A stretch of DNA of 5,415 nucleotides, taken from the NCBI GenBank assembly GCA_030620925.1, contig JAUXIQ010000162.1, positions 1 through 5,415 on the forward strand, given 5' to 3'. Of this stretch, positions 258 to 5,118 are shown in pieces. A program made the position numbers and the translations under genes. Every line of letters begins with the position of its first letter. The stretch's first letter is position 1. The notes below the pieces were generated by a model. The model searched no databases. It saw only the letters and a program-made list of their open reading frames with translations, and had not been told where the DNA came from. This DNA comes from JAUXIQ01 sp030620925 [NCBI: Nitrospinota bacterium] (GTDB lineage: Bacteria; JAUXIQ01).

Positions 258-265
258 ATTTGAAG

Positions 266-685
266 ATGGCAGAACTGATCAACGAAGTAGCGCTGGGCGT
301 TTCCAAGGGAACCGAAGTAGAAGAAGCCGTAGACCAGAACTTCCGGGGCGAGACCATGGAAGTAGGCCTATATCTGGCCATGGCGCGGCAGGCGGAACGG
401 GAAGGCTATCCTGAAGTGGCCAGGACGCTTGAGGCCATCGCCTGGGACGAAGCGCAGCACGCCGCCCACTTCGCCGAGCTTAACGGCAAGATCAGCACCA
501 GCACCAAAGAAAACATCGCCAAGATGCTCTCCGGCGAGCAGGCCGCCAACAAGATGAAAAAGGAAGCGGCCATCAAGGCCAAGGAGACGGAGTGCGACCC
601 GGCCCACGATTTCTTCGACGAATCTTCCCGCGATGAGGGGAGGCACGCCAGGGCACTCGAAGGGCTCCTCAAACGCTACTTCTAA
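266..685 (+). CDS. Rubrerythrin-family ferritin-like di-iron protein (no rubredoxin domain)
   Basis: This is a cytoplasmic four-helix-bundle di-iron protein of 139 residues, probably a hydrogen peroxide scavenger that takes electrons from an external donor. The first helix pair carries E29 in GETMEVGLY (helix 1) and the E62-x2-H65 motif of DEAQHAAH. The second pair carries E91 in a GEQAAN context and E124-x2-H127 in [11 protein letters not shown]. This repeated E...ExxH pattern is the rubrerythrin iron site. Full-length rubrerythrins (about 190 residues) add a rubredoxin domain with two CxxC pairs. Here there is a single cysteine (C110) and the protein ends after the bundle, so it belongs to the short, erythrin-like class and must receive electrons from a separate rubredoxin or similar carrier. 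The start at ATG 266 is set by the GAGGAG site. The PerR-like regulator end upstream and a strong terminator 18 nt after the stop suggest a peroxide-regulated gene, either monocistronic or transcribed with the regulator. The family call is firm; the peroxidase activity is inferred. Confidence 0.9.
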
Positions 686-702
686 TCGCTCCTTCACTCA
701 GA

Positions 703-741
703 AAGAAAAGCCGGGGTGTTTTTAAGACCCCGGCTTTTCTT
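703..741. terminator. Bidirectional intrinsic terminator between convergent genes
   Basis: The perfect 14-bp stem pairs AAGAAAAGCCGGGG (703-716) with CCCCGGCTTTTCTT (728-741), with an 11-nt loop between. The GC core is flanked by an A-rich left arm and T-rich right arm, so a U-tract is made in both directions. It lies 18 nt after the rubrerythrin stop and 19 nt beyond the stop of the minus-strand oxidoreductase, and can end both transcripts. Confidence 0.9.
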
Positions 742-760
742 ACCTCAAACGGGCGGTGCT

Positions 761-1729
761 TCATCTGGAAGAATCGGCCCGCACAGCGCTGCCGGTGCTC
801 AACGAATGGATTTTCGAGCATATCTCTCCGGCGCCTGCGATGATACCATCAACGAGTTCTTTAACGCTCACTATGTCATTTATCATCCCACACACCTGCA
901 CAGCGGCCATTGTGCTTCCCTGACGATAACCCCCGTCGACCGAGTTCCTGGGCTTCATGGCCCTCAGCTCTTCCTCCGATGCGCCCCCGGCCTCCGCCTC
1001 CATATACTCCCGCATGGCTTCGTTCAGGATAACCCTCACCGGCTTGCCGGTGAAAATAGTGCTCACCGTGGTCTGCTCTTCGCTGCTGTTCAGTATCAGT
1101 TCTTTCAGCTCGGGCGGCGCGGTGCTTTCATCGGTGGCGATGAACCGCGTCCCTATCTGCACCCCGGCAGCGCCCATGGCCAGCGCGGCGACAAAACCGC
1201 GGGCGTCGGCGAAGCCGCCCGCCGCCACCACCGGCAGCTTCACGGCGTCCACCACCTGGGGCACAAGGGGAAGCGTGGATACCTTCCCCACGTGACCGCC
1301 GGCTTCACACCCGGAAGCCACGATGACGTCCGCCCCCTCTTCCTCGAGCCTCAGCGCATGCCTGGCGGTGGGGACCACCGGTATCACGGTTATGCCGTGC
1401 TCTTTGAGCAGCTTCACCACCGGTGTGCGGGGGTCTCCCCTCCCCGTGGTGGCTATGGTCACCCCTTCGGATACGGACAGCTCAGCCATCTTCTGGAACC
1501 CCGGCCCCATGGGGACCAGGTTGACGGCGAAAGGTTTATCCGTAAGGTCTCTGGTGCGCTTGATTTCATCCCTGATCTGCTCCGGCCGGTAGTAGGCCGT
1601 GGCCAGCACCCCCAGGCAGCCGGCGTTAGAGACCGCGGCCACGAAACGGGCATCGGTTACCCCGGACATGGCCCCCTGCAGAATGGGATACTTTATTCCT
1701 AACGTGTCGCAAATAACGGTGTGGAACAT
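761..1729 (-). CDS. FMN-dependent nitronate monooxygenase / enoyl-ACP reductase II (FabK)-like oxidoreductase
   Basis: This 322-residue TIM-barrel flavoprotein belongs to the 2-nitropropane dioxygenase family. The N-terminus has the family signature LGIKYPILQGAM (10-21) followed by AVSNAGCLGVLA (32-43). The mid region has SGCEAGGHVG (139-148), where H146 is at the position of the catalytic histidine of both NMO and FabK. The phosphate-binding strands follow: VVAAGGFAD (167-175) and GAAGVQIGTRF (186-196). A further conserved patch, VDGGYRQGSTMAAVQ (264-278), resembles the C-terminal FMN-side loop of FabK. NMO oxidises alkyl nitronates, whereas FabK reduces enoyl-ACP with NADH; the motifs alone do not separate them. 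The start at 1729 is fixed by AGGGGGAGG just upstream; an in-frame extension would run antisense-free but through the ferredoxin gene. It is the last gene of the four-gene minus-strand operon, 20 nt after the ferredoxin, so a ferredoxin-linked reductase role is plausible. The tail after about residue 305 is poorly conserved in appearance. Confidence 0.85.
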   Translation of the reverse strand: MFHTVICDTLGIKYPILQGAMSGVTDARFVAAVSNAGCLGVLATAYYRPEQIRDEIKRTRDLTDKPFAVNLVPMGPGFQKMAELSVSEGVTIATTGRGDPRTPVVKLLKEHGITVIPVVPTARHALRLEEEGADVIVASGCEAGGHVGKVSTLPLVPQVVDAVKLPVVAAGGFADARGFVAALAMGAAGVQIGTRFIATDESTAPPELKELILNSSEEQTTVSTIFTGKPVRVILNEAMREYMEAEAGGASEEELRAMKPRNSVDGGYRQGSTMAAVQVCGMINDIVSVKELVDGIIAGAGEICSKIHSLSTGSAVRADSSR

Positions 1730-1731
1730 TT

Positions 1732-1740
1732 CCTCCCCCT
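1732..1740 (-). promoter_or_regulatory. Ribosome binding site that selects the oxidoreductase start
   Basis: On the minus strand AGGGGGAGG precedes ATG 1729 by 2 nt, with its AGGGGG part 5 nt away. The reading frame stays open far upstream to 1939, but that extension lies inside the ferredoxin gene, and the translated product begins family-like only at MFHTVICDTLG. Confidence 0.8.
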
Positions 1741-1749
1741 GTCCGCTCC

Positions 1750-1992
1750 TTACTCGAGGGTTATGCCGCCGTAGACGCAGTAATCCACGCAGACGTTGCA
1801 GGAAGTGCACTCCTCGGTGAACCGGGTAACTTTCTCTCCTGTCGGTTTGCGCTCTATGATAATCCTTGCCTTGGAGGGATTGAAGACTTTCTCGTAGGTT
1901 ATGGAGCAGATGAGCTGGCAGTTGATGCACTGCGTGCATCGGCCAACGTCTATCACCACGCTGGTGTTGTTCTCATCGACATAAGTTTCCAT
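1750..1992 (-). CDS. 2[4Fe-4S] ferredoxin-like electron carrier
   Basis: This 80-residue protein has two complete CxxCxxCxxxC motifs: C19, C22, C25, C29 and C62, C65, C68, C72. They are expected to bind two [4Fe-4S] clusters and carry low-potential electrons in the cytoplasm. The segment after the first motif, FNPSKARI (37-44), resembles iron-sulfur subunits that accompany aldehyde ferredoxin oxidoreductases and similar enzymes, rather than the compact clostridial ferredoxin, and separates the motifs by 32 residues. Both motifs lack the proline that usually follows the fourth cysteine (CS at 29-30, CV at 72-73). The start at ATG 1992 is preferred over an in-frame GTG at 2016: AAGAGG at 2001-2006 sits 8 nt before it, and nothing similar precedes the GTG. 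It lies 51 nt after the DUF169 gene and 20 nt before the FMN oxidoreductase, its likely redox partner by position. Confidence 0.9.
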   Translation of the reverse strand: METYVDENNTSVVIDVGRCTQCINCQLICSITYEKVFNPSKARIIIERKPTGEKVTRFTEECTSCNVCVDYCVYGGITLE

Positions 1993-2043
1993 GTCTCTAT
2001 CCTCTTTGGGTAGCACCGGCAGATTATCCGGAGAGGCCCCGGA

Positions 2044-2841
2044 TCAGCCCTTCTTTTTGTCCTTCTCCCCGTCCGGATAGCTGAAGGCCAGTCCCGCCGA
2101 GGGGTCCGCCTGTGCCCCCCACAGGGGGATGGGATACTTGAGCCCGGCCTTGGCCAGCCCCTGCAGCCCCTCTATGGCCTTGGGGAGAAAGCGGGGGGGC
2201 AGGGCCATCAGCATCTCATCGTCTGCGACGTGGCCGTAGCGCCTCTCCCCGTAGCAGGGAATGGCAGCCGCGGGCTTGTCGGACAGGATGCTCTGCGAAA
2301 TGGAGTCTGAACAGGCCGTTTCGCCCACGCAGAAGAACTCGTAGCGTTCGTAATCCTTCCACTGCAGCCCGTTGATGAGCAGGATGATCTGCGCCGGGTT
2401 GCCGAATAACAGGACGGTGTCCGGCGGGTCAAGCCTGCCCGAGCCCAGAGGGGAAAAAGCGGCGGCATGATACTTCCCTGCGGAAACGCGGGGGATGGCC
2501 TGCTGATGTTTTGCGGCGTCCGCCTTTTCCTTGAACCAGACTCCCGTCAGCCGGGTGCCGTCCATGAGGTCCGGTGCGGGGGTGGCAAGCCCTATGACCG
2601 TGGCGCAGTTGCCACCCACGAAATCGTCGGCGACAACCCCCAGCGTCCACCCTATTCTCCGGGCCTGATATATCACCTGGCACATGGTAGCCTTGCCCTG
2701 CAAACGGCGGATGCGGGGGACTTTCATCATCTCCTCTTCGGATTCGAAGAGCTTTATTCCTATGGGAAGCGTCCTCAGCCTCAACATGCCCTCCAGCATC
2801 GAAGAGAGCTCCTTCCAGTTCATTGCCGCTTTATCTTCCAT
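2044..2841 (-). CDS. DUF169 family protein (COG2043-like), function unknown
   Basis: This protein of 265 residues has no signal peptide or membrane segment, so it is presumably cytoplasmic. It fits the DUF169 pattern. The N-terminal LRLRTLPIGIKLF (20-32) resembles the family's 'L-x-L-x3-P-V-[AG]-[VI]-K-[LF]' opening. C54 follows in KATMCQVIYQAR, C79 in GGNCATVIGL, an FxxLG-like segment near 129-135, and a hydrophobic strand VLLFGNPAQIILLINGLQ (143-160). Then come C171 and C177 in FCVGETACSDSI, and C196 in PCYGERRYG followed by DDEMLMALPPR (207-217). The five cysteines suggest metal, cluster or thiol chemistry, but no biochemical role is established for the family as far as I know. The C-terminus is lysine-rich (KDKKKG). 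The start at 2841 has AAGGAGG at a 9-nt spacing. An internal Met at residue 7 lacks such a site. It lies between the XRE-cupin regulator (34-nt gap) and the ferredoxin (51-nt gap), which ties it to a redox pathway. Confidence 0.85.
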   Translation of the reverse strand: MEDKAAMNWKELSSMLEGMLRLRTLPIGIKLFESEEEMMKVPRIRRLQGKATMCQVIYQARRIGWTLGVVADDFVGGNCATVIGLATPAPDLMDGTRLTGVWFKEKADAAKHQQAIPRVSAGKYHAAAFSPLGSGRLDPPDTVLLFGNPAQIILLINGLQWKDYERYEFFCVGETACSDSISQSILSDKPAAAIPCYGERRYGHVADDEMLMALPPRFLPKAIEGLQGLAKAGLKYPIPLWGAQADPSAGLAFSYPDGEKDKKKG

Positions 2842-2875
2842 GGGGTCTAACCTCCTTCTTCTCAGGGCGTCTGCT

Positions 2876-3418
2876 CTACTTGGTGAGTATTACAAGCGCC
2901 CTGGCCTCCGTCGTTCCGGTATTGCGCCAATTATGGGGAACGCCTCCGTCGAAATAGGCGCTGTCTCCCTCTTCCAGATTATAAGTCCGATCGTTATAGA
3001 TGAACTGGGCTTTCCCTTCCAGCATATATATCAGCTTCATCTCCCCCGGCTCTACCGAGACGCTTTCAGCCCCCATATCACCGGGCCCCAGCGTGGAGAC
3101 TACGCCCACTATTCTTCCGCCCAAAATACCCGAGGCCAGTATCTGCCATTTTTCCGAGGTGTGGTCGAAGGTCAGAAGGCGGTGCTCATCCCTGCGGACG
3201 ATGCGGATGTAATCCGGCTTATCGTCGTCCTCGAAAAAATAGGTTATCCTTACCCCCAGCGACCTGGCGATTTTCCGGAGGGTGTTTATTGAAGGCGAGA
3301 GCCTGTCGTTCTCGATCTGGGAGATGGAACTTTTGGTGACCTCAGACAGTTTGGCCAATGTCTCCTGTGAAAGTTTCTTCTCGGAGCGAAGCTCTTTTAA
3401 CTTTTTTCCTATGGCCAA
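2876..3418 (-). CDS. XRE-family transcriptional regulator with C-terminal cupin domain
   Basis: This 180-residue regulator has an N-terminal lambda-repressor-like helix-turn-helix: KKLKELRSEKKLSQETLAKL then VTKSSISQIENDRLSPSINTLRKIARSLGV, residues 5-56. The recognition helix is around SSISQIE (30-36). A linker follows, then a cupin beta-barrel (about 105-178) with the motif PGEMKLIYMLEG (124-135) and the second motif GDSAYFDGGVPHNWRNTG (151-168). In many family members the first cupin motif carries histidines for a metal. Here those positions are not histidine, leaving H162 as the only obvious candidate, so the barrel probably binds an organic ligand rather than a metal. Translation starts at TTG 3418: no ATG or GTG lies upstream in frame, the helix-turn-helix begins five residues in, and AGAGGG is 6 nt away. 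As first gene of the operon with DUF169, ferredoxin and the flavoenzyme, it probably controls them and itself in response to a pathway metabolite. Confidence 0.92.
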   Translation of the reverse strand: MAIGKKLKELRSEKKLSQETLAKLSEVTKSSISQIENDRLSPSINTLRKIARSLGVRITYFFEDDDKPDYIRIVRRDEHRLLTFDHTSEKWQILASGILGGRIVGVVSTLGPGDMGAESVSVEPGEMKLIYMLEGKAQFIYNDRTYNLEEGDSAYFDGGVPHNWRNTGTTEARALVILTK

Positions 3419-3491: not shown

Positions 3492-3520
3492 ATGATATTA
3501 TCAAAAGAGGCGGCAGTCAA
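3492..3520 (-). promoter_or_regulatory. Sigma-70-type promoter of the minus-strand operon
   Basis: On the minus strand TTGACT (3520-3515) and TATCAT (3497-3492) each match the -35 and -10 consensus at five of six positions and are separated by exactly 17 bp. Transcription would start near 3485 and leave a leader of about 65 nt before the TTG start of the XRE-cupin regulator. No equally good promoter precedes the other genes of the operon. Confidence 0.7.
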
Positions 3521-3535
3521 GCAGATTTAAACTCT

Positions 3536-3552
3536 GTTAACATATACTTAAC
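3536..3552. promoter_or_regulatory. Inverted repeat upstream of the operon promoter, candidate operator
   Basis: GTTAA-CATATAC-TTAAC is a 5-bp inverted repeat with a 7-bp spacer in the AT-rich part of the divergent intergenic region, 16 bp upstream of the -35 element of the minus-strand promoter. XRE-cupin regulators often bind such short dyads near their own promoter. The arms are short, so chance cannot be excluded. Confidence 0.3.
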
Positions 3553-3701: not shown

Positions 3702-4622
3702 ATGAACATCATTTCGGCGAGTCGTCGGACGGATATCCCCGCATTCTATTCCGCATGGTTCATGGGCCGCATAAGGGAGGGTTATGCGGCCTACCGCAAT
3801 CCTTTCGGCGGACAGGAACACCGCGTCTCCCTCCTCCCTGAAAACGTGCACAGCATCGTATTCTGGTCCAAGGACTACGGCCCCCTGATCCCTCACCTGC
3901 GGACGCTCGACTCGTCAGGATACCATTTTTGCTTCCACTTCACCATAACCGGGCTGCCCCCGGTTCTCGAAGAAAACGTACCAACTCAGCGCGAAACCGT
4001 GGAGCAGTTCAATAAGCTGGCAGACGAATACGGCCCCCGCCGCATATTCTGGCGCTACGACCCCATACTGCTCTCAGACCTCACGGGCCCCGACCATCAC
4101 CTCAGCACCTTCGAGGGGCTGGCCGGGGAGCTGCGGGGCCGCACGGAGCGCTGCTACATAAGTTTCACCCAATACTACTCGAAAGTTAAACGCAATACCG
4201 CCGCCCTTACCAACCGGCGGGGAATCAAATGCTTCGACCCGCACCCGGAAGAAAAATTCGCCCTCGTATCCCGGCTGGCGGAAATAGCCGAGAGCAACGG
4301 CATGGAGCTTCTATCCTGTTGCGGCGACCATCTGGTAGAAGGCAAGGTGGGCAAGGGGAGCTGCATCGACGGCGCCCTCCTGAAAGAGCTGTTTCCGGAT
4401 AAGCCCTTCGGCTTCGGGCCCAATCCCACGCGGCCCCAATGCGCCTGCACCGACAGCAGGGATATAGGCGCCTACGATACGTGCCCCCACGGCTGCGTAT
4501 ACTGCTACGCCAACGCCAACAAAGAAGCGGCGAAAAGAAAACATGCGGAACATCTTCCTCAAACGGAAACGCTGGGGGGAAACACCGTCGAAGCCGCCGA
4601 GGGGAAAGAGCTGAACCGATAA
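3702..4622 (+). CDS. DUF1848 family protein with C-terminal radical-SAM-like cysteine motif
   Basis: This 306-residue protein opens with ISASRRTDIPAFYSAWFM (4-21), the hallmark start of DUF1848. Other family-like blocks are VFWSKDYGPLI (53-63), FTITGLPP (80-87), RIFWRYDPILL (114-124) and CYISFTQYYSKV (151-162). The C-terminal part has C206-C207, C221, PQCAC (C247, C249), then DIGAYDTCPHGCVYCYAN (254-271), where C261, C265 and C268 form CX3CX2C. This is the spacing of the radical SAM [4Fe-4S] motif, but placed at the end of the domain instead of the start. An aromatic follows the second residue of the last CxxC, as in radical SAM enzymes. An iron-sulfur role is therefore likely; substrate and reaction are unknown. 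The start at ATG 3702 has GAGGG at 7 nt. The last 30 or so residues are charged and look non-conserved. The DUF2231 gene follows after 22 nt and is probably co-transcribed. Confidence 0.88.
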   Translation: MNIISASRRTDIPAFYSAWFMGRIREGYAAYRNPFGGQEHRVSLLPENVHSIVFWSKDYGPLIPHLRTLDSSGYHFCFHFTITGLPPVLEENVPTQRETVEQFNKLADEYGPRRIFWRYDPILLSDLTGPDHHLSTFEGLAGELRGRTERCYISFTQYYSKVKRNTAALTNRRGIKCFDPHPEEKFALVSRLAEIAESNGMELLSCCGDHLVEGKVGKGSCIDGALLKELFPDKPFGFGPNPTRPQCACTDSRDIGAYDTCPHGCVYCYANANKEAAKRKHAEHLPQTETLGGNTVEAAEGKELNR

Positions 4623-4644
4623 CCGTAAATGAGGAGGCTCGAAT

Positions 4645-5118
4645 ATGCCCAACATCCATCCCCTGATAGTGCATTTCCCCATCGCCCTCTTTTCCGCAGG
4701 GTTCCTGGTAGGGATGGTCGGCTACATCTTCAGGAAGGACATCCTTAAAAACGCCGGGCTGGTAATGGTGATACTGGGTGCCGCGGGTGCCGTGGCCGCA
4801 GCCCTTTCCGGAGAGGAGGCTGAGGAAGCGGTGGGAAAATTCCTCTCCGCGGAGGGTGAACAGGCGCTGGAGAGCCACGAGACCTTCGGCGGCGTAACCG
4901 TTTACATCCTTCCCGCGGCGGCCCTGCTCAACCTGCTGGGAGCGGTTTTCCTGAAAAACAGAAGGAGAGCCGCCGCGGCGCTGCTGGCAGCCTACGTTGC
5001 GGCGGGCATACTGGGGGTCATCATGGTCAACGTTACCGCCTACAAGGGCGGACGCCTGGTCTACGAATACGGGGCGGGAGTCAGCAGACCGGCCCTGGAA
5101 ACGCAGGAGCGGAAATAA
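4645..5118 (+). CDS. DUF2231 family four-helix inner-membrane protein
   Basis: This integral membrane protein of 157 residues has four predicted hydrophobic segments at about 7-29, 36-55, 82-103 and 109-132. The N-terminal motif NIHPLIVHFPIAL (3-15) with H5 and H10 is typical of DUF2231. H78 in ESHETFG before helix 3 and the closing segment GGRLVYEYGAGV (135-146) also fit the family. Histidines at these membrane-edge positions have prompted suggestions of metal or haem binding in such proteins, but no function is shown here. An acidic loop (EEAEEAV, 57-63) separates helices 2 and 3. The start at ATG 4645 has a strong GAGGAGG at 7 nt (4631-4637). The gene follows DUF1848 by 22 nt, suggesting one transcript. 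No convincing hairpin with a T-run follows the stop, so the end of the operon is not visible. Confidence 0.88.
   Translation: MPNIHPLIVHFPIALFSAGFLVGMVGYIFRKDILKNAGLVMVILGAAGAVAAALSGEEAEEAVGKFLSAEGEQALESHETFGGVTVYILPAAALLNLLGAVFLKNRRRAAAALLAAYVAAGILGVIMVNVTAYKGGRLVYEYGAGVSRPALETQERK

What the first reader, a model, noticed from the sequence alone, without database searches (positions are those of the whole stretch)
761..3418. Uncharacterised four-gene redox operon: XRE-cupin, DUF169, 2[4Fe-4S] ferredoxin, FMN oxidoreductase
Four same-strand genes with 20-51 nt gaps, one good promoter and one strong terminator form a self-contained unit. A cupin-type sensor regulator, a cysteine-containing protein of unknown function, a low-potential electron carrier and an NMO/FabK-type flavoenzyme together suggest a ferredoxin-linked reduction or oxidation of an unknown metabolite. 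DUF169 has no assigned function that I know of, so this neighbourhood could indicate one.
Basis: partly seen in the sequence, partly recalled or inferred. Interest (0 to 1): 0.65.

Follow-up and report, generated by a model that had tools for sequence, protein, structure and literature searches.

The report
One-off redox operon with DUF169
A real four-gene bacterial operon joins a regulator, an uncharacterised cysteine-bearing protein, a small ferredoxin and a flavin enzyme; the grouping was not seen in the related genomes examined, where many relatives of the uncharacterised protein are tied instead to the last enzyme of coenzyme A synthesis, the better clue to its role.

Summary
Four minus-strand genes (XRE-cupin regulator, DUF169, two-cluster ferredoxin, NMO/FabK-type flavoenzyme) have gaps of 34, 51 and 20 nt and end at a strong bidirectional terminator (z -5.5). 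The promoter is well placed, but such sites are no commoner in the window than chance.

A ferredoxin-linked flavin redox role fits: the ferredoxin resembles the Fe-S subunit of tungsten aldehyde oxidoreductase. The flavoenzyme is a paralog, not the housekeeping FabK, which lies in a fab cluster elsewhere.

The proposed recurring DUF169-ferredoxin-NMO partnership was not found. Among 172 distinct relatives read (122 with useful flanks), this ferredoxin occurs near none, an NMO fragment near one and a weak XRE hit near one. In its own clade of 35, only the window has these partners.

The sister clade, in sulfate reducers, Firmicutes, Chloroflexi and Helarchaeota, sits with DUF2889, a PHP protein and dephospho-CoA kinase (CoaE). 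Of 80 named loci, 37 have CoaE fused to DUF169. Where fused or adjacent, it was the only CoaE found in 7 of 12 genomes checked. Conserved Cys suggest a metal or Fe-S site. Joint function remains inferred.

The parts
2876..3418 (-). XRE-cupin transcriptional regulator, 180 aa, TTG start
   Evidence: HTH_3 and Cupin_2 over cut-off; PuuR equivalog 86.9 bits against cut-off 211
2044..2841 (-). DUF169 / COG2043 protein, 265 aa, Cys54, Cys79, Cys177, Cys196
   Evidence: PF02596 3.8e-44; Cys conservation
1750..1992 (-). Two-cluster ferredoxin of aldehyde-oxidoreductase type, 80 aa (ATG start)
   Evidence: 8 Cys in two CxxCxxCxxxC motifs; 8c0z_C 5.8e-7
761..1729 (-). NMO/FabK-type FMN oxidoreductase, 322 aa, His146 kept
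   Evidence: PF03060 7.2e-74; FabK chain 7l00 4.5e-70; alignment
3492..3520 (-). Promoter-like site TTGACT-17-TATCAT
   Evidence: 10 of 12 matches; 3 sites found in window against 2.4 expected
3493..3503 (.). Inverted repeat TGATAATATCA over the -10 box, possible operator
   Evidence: exact 5-base arms; no chance estimate made
3536..3552 (.). Inverted repeat GTTAA-7-TTAAC upstream of the promoter, possible operator
   Evidence: exact 5-base arms; no chance estimate made
698..745 (.). Bidirectional intrinsic terminator
   Evidence: -26.4 kcal/mol, z -5.53, 0 of 200 shuffles

Best explanation
A compact, probably autoregulated operon of one poorly sampled bacterium. Shown by sequence: four genes of these families in one direction, ending at one terminator. 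Inferred: the XRE-cupin protein represses the promoter at inverted repeats near the -10 and -35 boxes until a small molecule binds its cupin domain. The NMO-type enzyme holds FMN and oxidises or reduces an acyl- or enoate-type substrate at His146. The two-cluster ferredoxin, of the aldehyde-oxidoreductase kind, passes electrons between that flavin and the low-potential pool. DUF169 binds a metal or Fe-S centre through its conserved Cys and serves CoA or acyl-CoA chemistry, as its relatives' tie to dephospho-CoA kinase suggests. The enzyme is not the cell's FabK. The union of the four genes looks like a local assembly, not a conserved system.
For: Compact unit with a strong terminator. Flavoenzyme nearest to FabK chains with His146 kept, but under the FabK cut-off (296.5 against 453.1), while the copy on contig 33 passes it (506.8) beside PlsX. 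Ferredoxin nearest in PDB to an aldehyde oxidoreductase Fe-S subunit; of four ferredoxin paralogs in the genome, two lie directly beside aldehyde oxidoreductase genes. FabX shows a flavin of the NMO family coupled to a [4Fe-4S] cluster (PMC8626469, passages). DUF169 Cys pattern CCCC in 109 and DCCC in 8 of 119 near relatives. CoaE fused to DUF169 in 37 of 80 loci.
Against: No partner recurs in relatives, so joint function rests on one genome. A third ferredoxin paralog (46%, contig 292) has no aldehyde oxidoreductase in the held stretch; the fourth was not looked at. The flavoenzyme keeps a FabK-like C-terminal region and may simply use NAD(P)H. Cys196 is missing in 12 of 39 far DUF169 relatives and Cys177 in 2. 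The clade of the window protein has no CoaE link in the loci held. The promoter is not above chance.
Confidence: 0.38

Rival explanations
1. A chance or short-lived gene cluster: the four genes share a promoter but not a pathway, and DUF169 acts alone, as its closest relatives seem to.
For: In a clade of 35 (support 0.945) the other 34 have none of the tested partners in the held flanks; 0 of 172 distinct relatives have the ferredoxin.
Against: Tight gaps, a shared terminator and no internal site on the same strand; ferredoxin and flavoenzyme are plausible redox partners.
Confidence: 0.3
2. The ferredoxin serves an aldehyde oxidoreductase encoded elsewhere, and the operon is part of an aldehyde or carboxylic acid response; the flavoenzyme is an NAD(P)H-dependent enoate or nitronate enzyme in the same response.
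For: Ferredoxin type; two of four paralogs lie beside aldehyde oxidoreductase genes; FabK-like C-terminal region kept.
Against: Those aldehyde oxidoreductase genes already have ferredoxins of their own next door; none is in the window.
Confidence: 0.2
3. The flavoenzyme is a second enoyl-ACP reductase and the unit belongs to fatty-acid synthesis.
For: 42% identity to the genome's likely FabK; FabK chains are its best PDB matches.
Against: Of six copies scored against the FabK model, the window copy is lowest (296.5; the others 353-507). No fatty-acid synthesis gene was recognised in the window.
Confidence: 0.07

Closest known systems
DUF169-CoaE module (DUF2889, DUF2889, PHP, DUF169, CoaE) of anaerobes, described here loci
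   Same: Homologous DUF169 with the same four-Cys pattern in most members
   Different: No CoaE, PHP or DUF2889 in the window; the tree puts the window protein in a sister clade without these partners
FabK, enoyl-ACP reductase II (TIGR03151)
   Same: Same fold family, conserved His, near full-length alignment
   Different: Score 296.5 under the 453.1 cut-off; another gene in this genome passes it
FabX of Helicobacter pylori (PMC8626469, passages)
   Same: NMO-family flavoenzyme with an Fe-S electron partner
   Different: FabX holds its own cluster by four Cys; the window enzyme has no CxxxCxxxC motif, and any cluster would be on a separate ferredoxin
AorA of Aromatoleum aldehyde oxidoreductase (PMC10413684, passages; 8c0z_C)
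   Same: CxxCxxCxxxC motifs and NPSK stretch, E 5.8e-7
   Different: AorA holds four clusters and forms filaments with AorB; the window protein has two motifs and no aldehyde oxidoreductase beside it

Membership tests
DUF169 (PF02596) | Score over the Pfam gathering cut-off | tested here: met
   151.5 bits against 27
DUF169-CoaE module | CoaE, PHP and DUF2889 beside DUF169 | tested here: not met
   None among the window's genes; CoaE of this genome is on contig 328
DUF169-CoaE module | DUF2889 present in the genome | tested here: inconclusive
   No match, but the control rang nowhere and the genome is 89% complete
NMO family (PF03060) | Score over the Pfam gathering cut-off | tested here: met
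   249.6 bits against 28
FabK (TIGR03151) | Score over the curated equivalog cut-off | tested here: not met
   296.5 against 453.1
FabK (TIGR03151) | Catalytic histidine beside FMN | tested here: met
   His146 invariant with five paralogs including the one over the FabK cut-off; its role is taken
FabX | Four cluster-binding Cys in the C-terminal part (C300, C304, C308, C320) | tested here: not met
   Cys only at 7, 38, 141, 280, 304; no CxxxCxxxC
Aldehyde oxidoreductase Fe-S subunit | CxxCxxCxxxC motifs of the AorA kind | tested here: met
   Two motifs, 8c0z_C best in PDB
Aldehyde oxidoreductase Fe-S subunit | Aldehyde oxidoreductase gene beside it | tested here: not met
   None in the window; present beside two paralogs
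PuuR regulator | Score over the curated cut-off | tested here: not met
   86.9 against 211
Thiolase fold (for DUF169) | Structural match well above background | tested here: inconclusive
   VIA-align best Z 4.6, rmsd 5.9, 154 aligned, 4xl2_A; Foldseek best E 0.39

The most novel reading that the evidence does not exclude
DUF169 (COG2043) is a metal or Fe-S protein of CoA metabolism. In sulfate reducers and other anaerobes it is one half of what is often the cell's only dephospho-CoA kinase, and with a PHP phosphoesterase and two DUF2889 proteins it sets or senses the CoA/dephospho-CoA balance by redox state. The window shows a branch outside that module, joined to a ferredoxin-linked acyl-type flavoenzyme.
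Probability: 0.25. Interest if true: 0.65.

Novelty: new variant of a known kind. Interest (0 to 1): 0.4.

Why it matters
All four families are known; their union was not seen in the genomes searched. The larger value is the side result: a widespread family without an assigned function is fused, in many sulfate reducers, to an essential CoA enzyme, and has a conserved four-Cys (or Asp-Cys3) set. That makes the roles of DUF169, DUF2889 and the linked PHP protein testable together. Searches of the held paper library for DUF169 (16 papers, several of them about other families whose numbers begin with 169), COG2043 (1), DUF2889 (2) and CoaE with fusion terms (6 with at least 4 of 5 terms) listed no title or abstract on this link; most of those papers were not opened, and subscription journals are largely missing from the library.

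Tried and rejected
Rfam scan of the window: no match. 16S search to name the organism: none found in the genome. rpoB against 22 chosen genomes: best full-length 62% (an Abyssobacteria genome and G024), so the phylum stays unplaced; all 'relatives' listed are 'same domain' only.

PDB sequence search for DUF169: nothing credible (best E 0.67). Structure library: no Foldseek match under E 0.39; the thiolase lead is too weak to use. Model coordinates cannot be read here, so whether the four Cys meet in space was not tested.

The first neighbour clustering was swamped by shadow ORFs of high-GC genomes and was redone with genes chosen by conservation. Gene calling is rough; no proper gene finder was at hand.

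Flavoenzyme as the cell's FabK: rejected. As a FabX with its own cluster: rejected by its Cys positions. Ferredoxin as a recurring DUF169 partner: a motif scan found other two-motif proteins within 3 kb of DUF169 in four non-window loci: L119 (75 aa, 172 bases off, same strand, another type), L124, L038 and L125 (1.7-2.4 kb off).

Papers: passages around DUF169 or COG2043 in four papers were seen: a list of genes linked to YedE-type selenium genes; a table where interruption of a DUF169 gene (Dde_0597) in Desulfovibrio alaskensis G20 goes with fitness 2.25 under nitrate; an occasional neighbour of archaeal SepRS; a table of DUFs. A DUF2889 passage names no function in the part shown. None assigns DUF169 a function. 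Searches for nitronate monooxygenase with ferredoxin and acyl- or enoyl-CoA: in the listings only FabX bore on this.
Full report
What is there. The window is a whole 5415-base contig of a fragmented genome (2.50 Mb, 445 contigs, 89% complete). On the minus strand four genes run in one direction: XRE-cupin regulator (3418-2876), DUF169 (2841-2044), small ferredoxin (1992-1750) and NMO-type flavoenzyme (1729-761). Gaps are 34, 51 and 20 nt with ribosome sites. A strong hairpin at 698-745 closes the unit (z -5.53) and also serves the convergent rubrerythrin-like gene. The promoter-like site at 3520-3492 is well placed, but the window holds no more such sites than shuffled sequence (3 against 2.4). 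Two inverted repeats lie over and beside it and may be operators; their chance rate was not estimated.

The flavoenzyme. Its best solved relatives are FabK enoyl reductases (4.5e-70), ahead of nitronate monooxygenases (3.9e-46 and weaker). It misses the FabK cut-off by far (296.5 against 453.1 bits). The genome has 12 matches to it, itself included: ten near full length, two of these with one in-frame stop besides a third on contig 33 whose frame shows one TGA within the searched stretch, and two partial. The contig 33 copy passes the FabK cut-off at 506.8 over its open frame of 318 residues and lies beside PlsX and a FabF-like ORF: the likely housekeeping FabK. Six copies were scored and the window copy is lowest. 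His146 is kept. The enzyme lacks the Cys set by which FabX holds its [4Fe-4S] cluster. FabX still shows that a flavin of this family can be coupled to Fe-S, and that its cluster domain stands in place of FabK's NAD(P)H-binding motif (PMC8626469, passages). The window enzyme keeps a FabK-like C-terminal region, which speaks for NAD(P)H use and against need of a ferredoxin.

The ferredoxin. Eight Cys in two CxxCxxCxxxC motifs and a FNPSKARI stretch match the iron-sulfur subunit of a tungsten aldehyde oxidoreductase (8c0z_C, 5.8e-7). Four paralogs were found in the genome. The best (contig 127; 47%, 48%) is directly upstream of an aldehyde oxidoreductase gene, and so is a larger one on contig 432. 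The second best (contig 292, 46%) has no such gene in the held stretch; the fourth was not looked at. So the type is clear, its partner is not.

DUF169 in other genomes. A scan of one genome for each of 84,980 species gave 230 confirmed relatives; the best 80 (42-52% identical in the best segment) were kept and read, the other 150 were not seen. In those 80 loci the window's ferredoxin had 0 hits, NMO 1 (L061, opposite strand, 29 bits) and XRE 1 (L014, opposite strand, 24 bits, 3 kb off); flanks of 1.5 kb or more on both sides were held for 60 of 80. Further searches took 297 genomes of the phylum of Desulfatibacillum (126 with a match), 386 spread genomes (27 with a match, the window's own included) and 400 genomes of the phylum of a Dehalococcoidia genome (29 with a match). 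Up to 30 places of each became loci, mostly with 1.5 kb flanks, and 34 larger regions were taken. Over all, 207 loci hold DUF169, 4 being copies of the window; the rest are 172 distinct genes, 122 of them with at least 1 kb held on both sides. Of the 172, 0 have the ferredoxin, 1 has NMO, 1 has XRE (the two above). The closest protein found is 53% identical. On a FastTree tree of 153 sequences the window protein falls in a clade of 35 (support 0.945; 0.819 for the inner clade of 34), and the other 34 have none of the tested partners within 2.5 kb or the held flank.

The sister group. Here DUF169 has steady company. Of the 80 named loci, 44 have DUF2889 and PHP within 4 kb, 41 have CoaE (37 fused to DUF169, 4 separate), 33 have all three kinds, and 26 have none; those 26 are mainly Acetobacteraceae, Rhodospirillales and unnamed Proteobacteria, with one Chloroflexi genome (families named). 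Hosts of the module include Desulfobacterota, Firmicutes, Chloroflexi, Abyssobacteria and Helarchaeota. The tree node joining module and non-module groups is weak (0.18), so which came first is open. PF01121 was counted in 20 genomes: in 12 of them CoaE is fused to or beside DUF169, and it is the only CoaE found in 7, among them two single-contig chromosomes and two isolate drafts. Five have a second copy, and in one of these (L076) the copy beside DUF169 has two in-frame TAG codons. Two Helarchaeota genomes and one Desulfovirgula genome gave no match; in archaea another enzyme does this step (PMC6650551, abstract in a listing). Drafts may hide further copies. The window's genome has one DUF169 and one CoaE, on contig 328 without DUF169. 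Its search for DUF2889 was empty, but so was the control.

The Cys set. Positions 54, 79, 177 and 196 read CCCC in 109 of 119 near relatives, DCCC in 8, and differ otherwise in 2. In 39 far relatives position 54 is always Cys; the second Cys sits at 76 in at least 36; position 177 is not Cys in 2 and position 196 not in 12. Asp in place of one Cys is known in some [4Fe-4S] proteins (recalled), so the pattern suggests a cluster or metal site in the near group; in the far group a full four-Cys set is not general. The model is good (pLDDT 85.4), but no solved fold stands out.

Reading. The unit most likely makes an FMN enzyme for an acyl- or enoate-type substrate with its own ferredoxin, under a cupin-type repressor, with DUF169 as a metal-binding partner whose relatives are tied to CoA metabolism. 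Shown: gene content, order, terminator, families, and lack of the partnership in the loci read. Inferred: co-transcription, joint function, direction of electron flow, metal binding, and any CoA link in this branch. The hope that ferredoxin and NMO recur with DUF169 is not borne out; CoaE, PHP and DUF2889 are the better lead.

Score. As an operon it is one genome's assembly of known parts. The DUF169-CoaE fusion makes an old unknown testable, which lifts the interest to 0.4.

Noticed in passing
L031:7905-9428 and 36 further loci: DUF169 is fused to dephospho-CoA kinase (CoaE) in one open frame; often the only CoaE found in the genome.
   Followed up: partly
L019:5654-8750, L065:6399-8792 and similar loci: Conserved gene run DUF2889, DUF2889, PHP, (CoaE), DUF169, also in Helarchaeota (an Asgard archaeal group) without a bacterial-type CoaE.
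   Followed up: partly
L193, L163, L194, L093, L195, L095, L196, L197: Eight DUF169 relatives have Asp in place of Cys54 while keeping the other three Cys (read counts and list; two further listed loci differ in other ways).
   Followed up: no
G106, G269, G322, G278: Some genomes carry 6-8 DUF169 paralogs, mostly of the distant group.
   Followed up: no
L076, CoaE beside DUF169 (G699 C10:30265-30789): This CoaE frame has two in-frame TAG codons; decay or a read-through code was not examined.
   Followed up: no
L133:5429-6919: DUF169 directly followed by DUF1847, then an AMP-binding (acyl-CoA synthetase type) gene.
   Followed up: no
window 260-685: Rubrerythrin-like gene convergent with the operon, sharing its terminator.
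   Followed up: no
window 3702-5118: DUF1848 gene followed by a DUF2231 membrane protein gene on the plus strand, divergent from the operon.
   Followed up: no
G000 C127 (L159) and C432 (L161): Two aldehyde ferredoxin oxidoreductase genes, each directly downstream of a ferredoxin related to the window's.
   Followed up: partly
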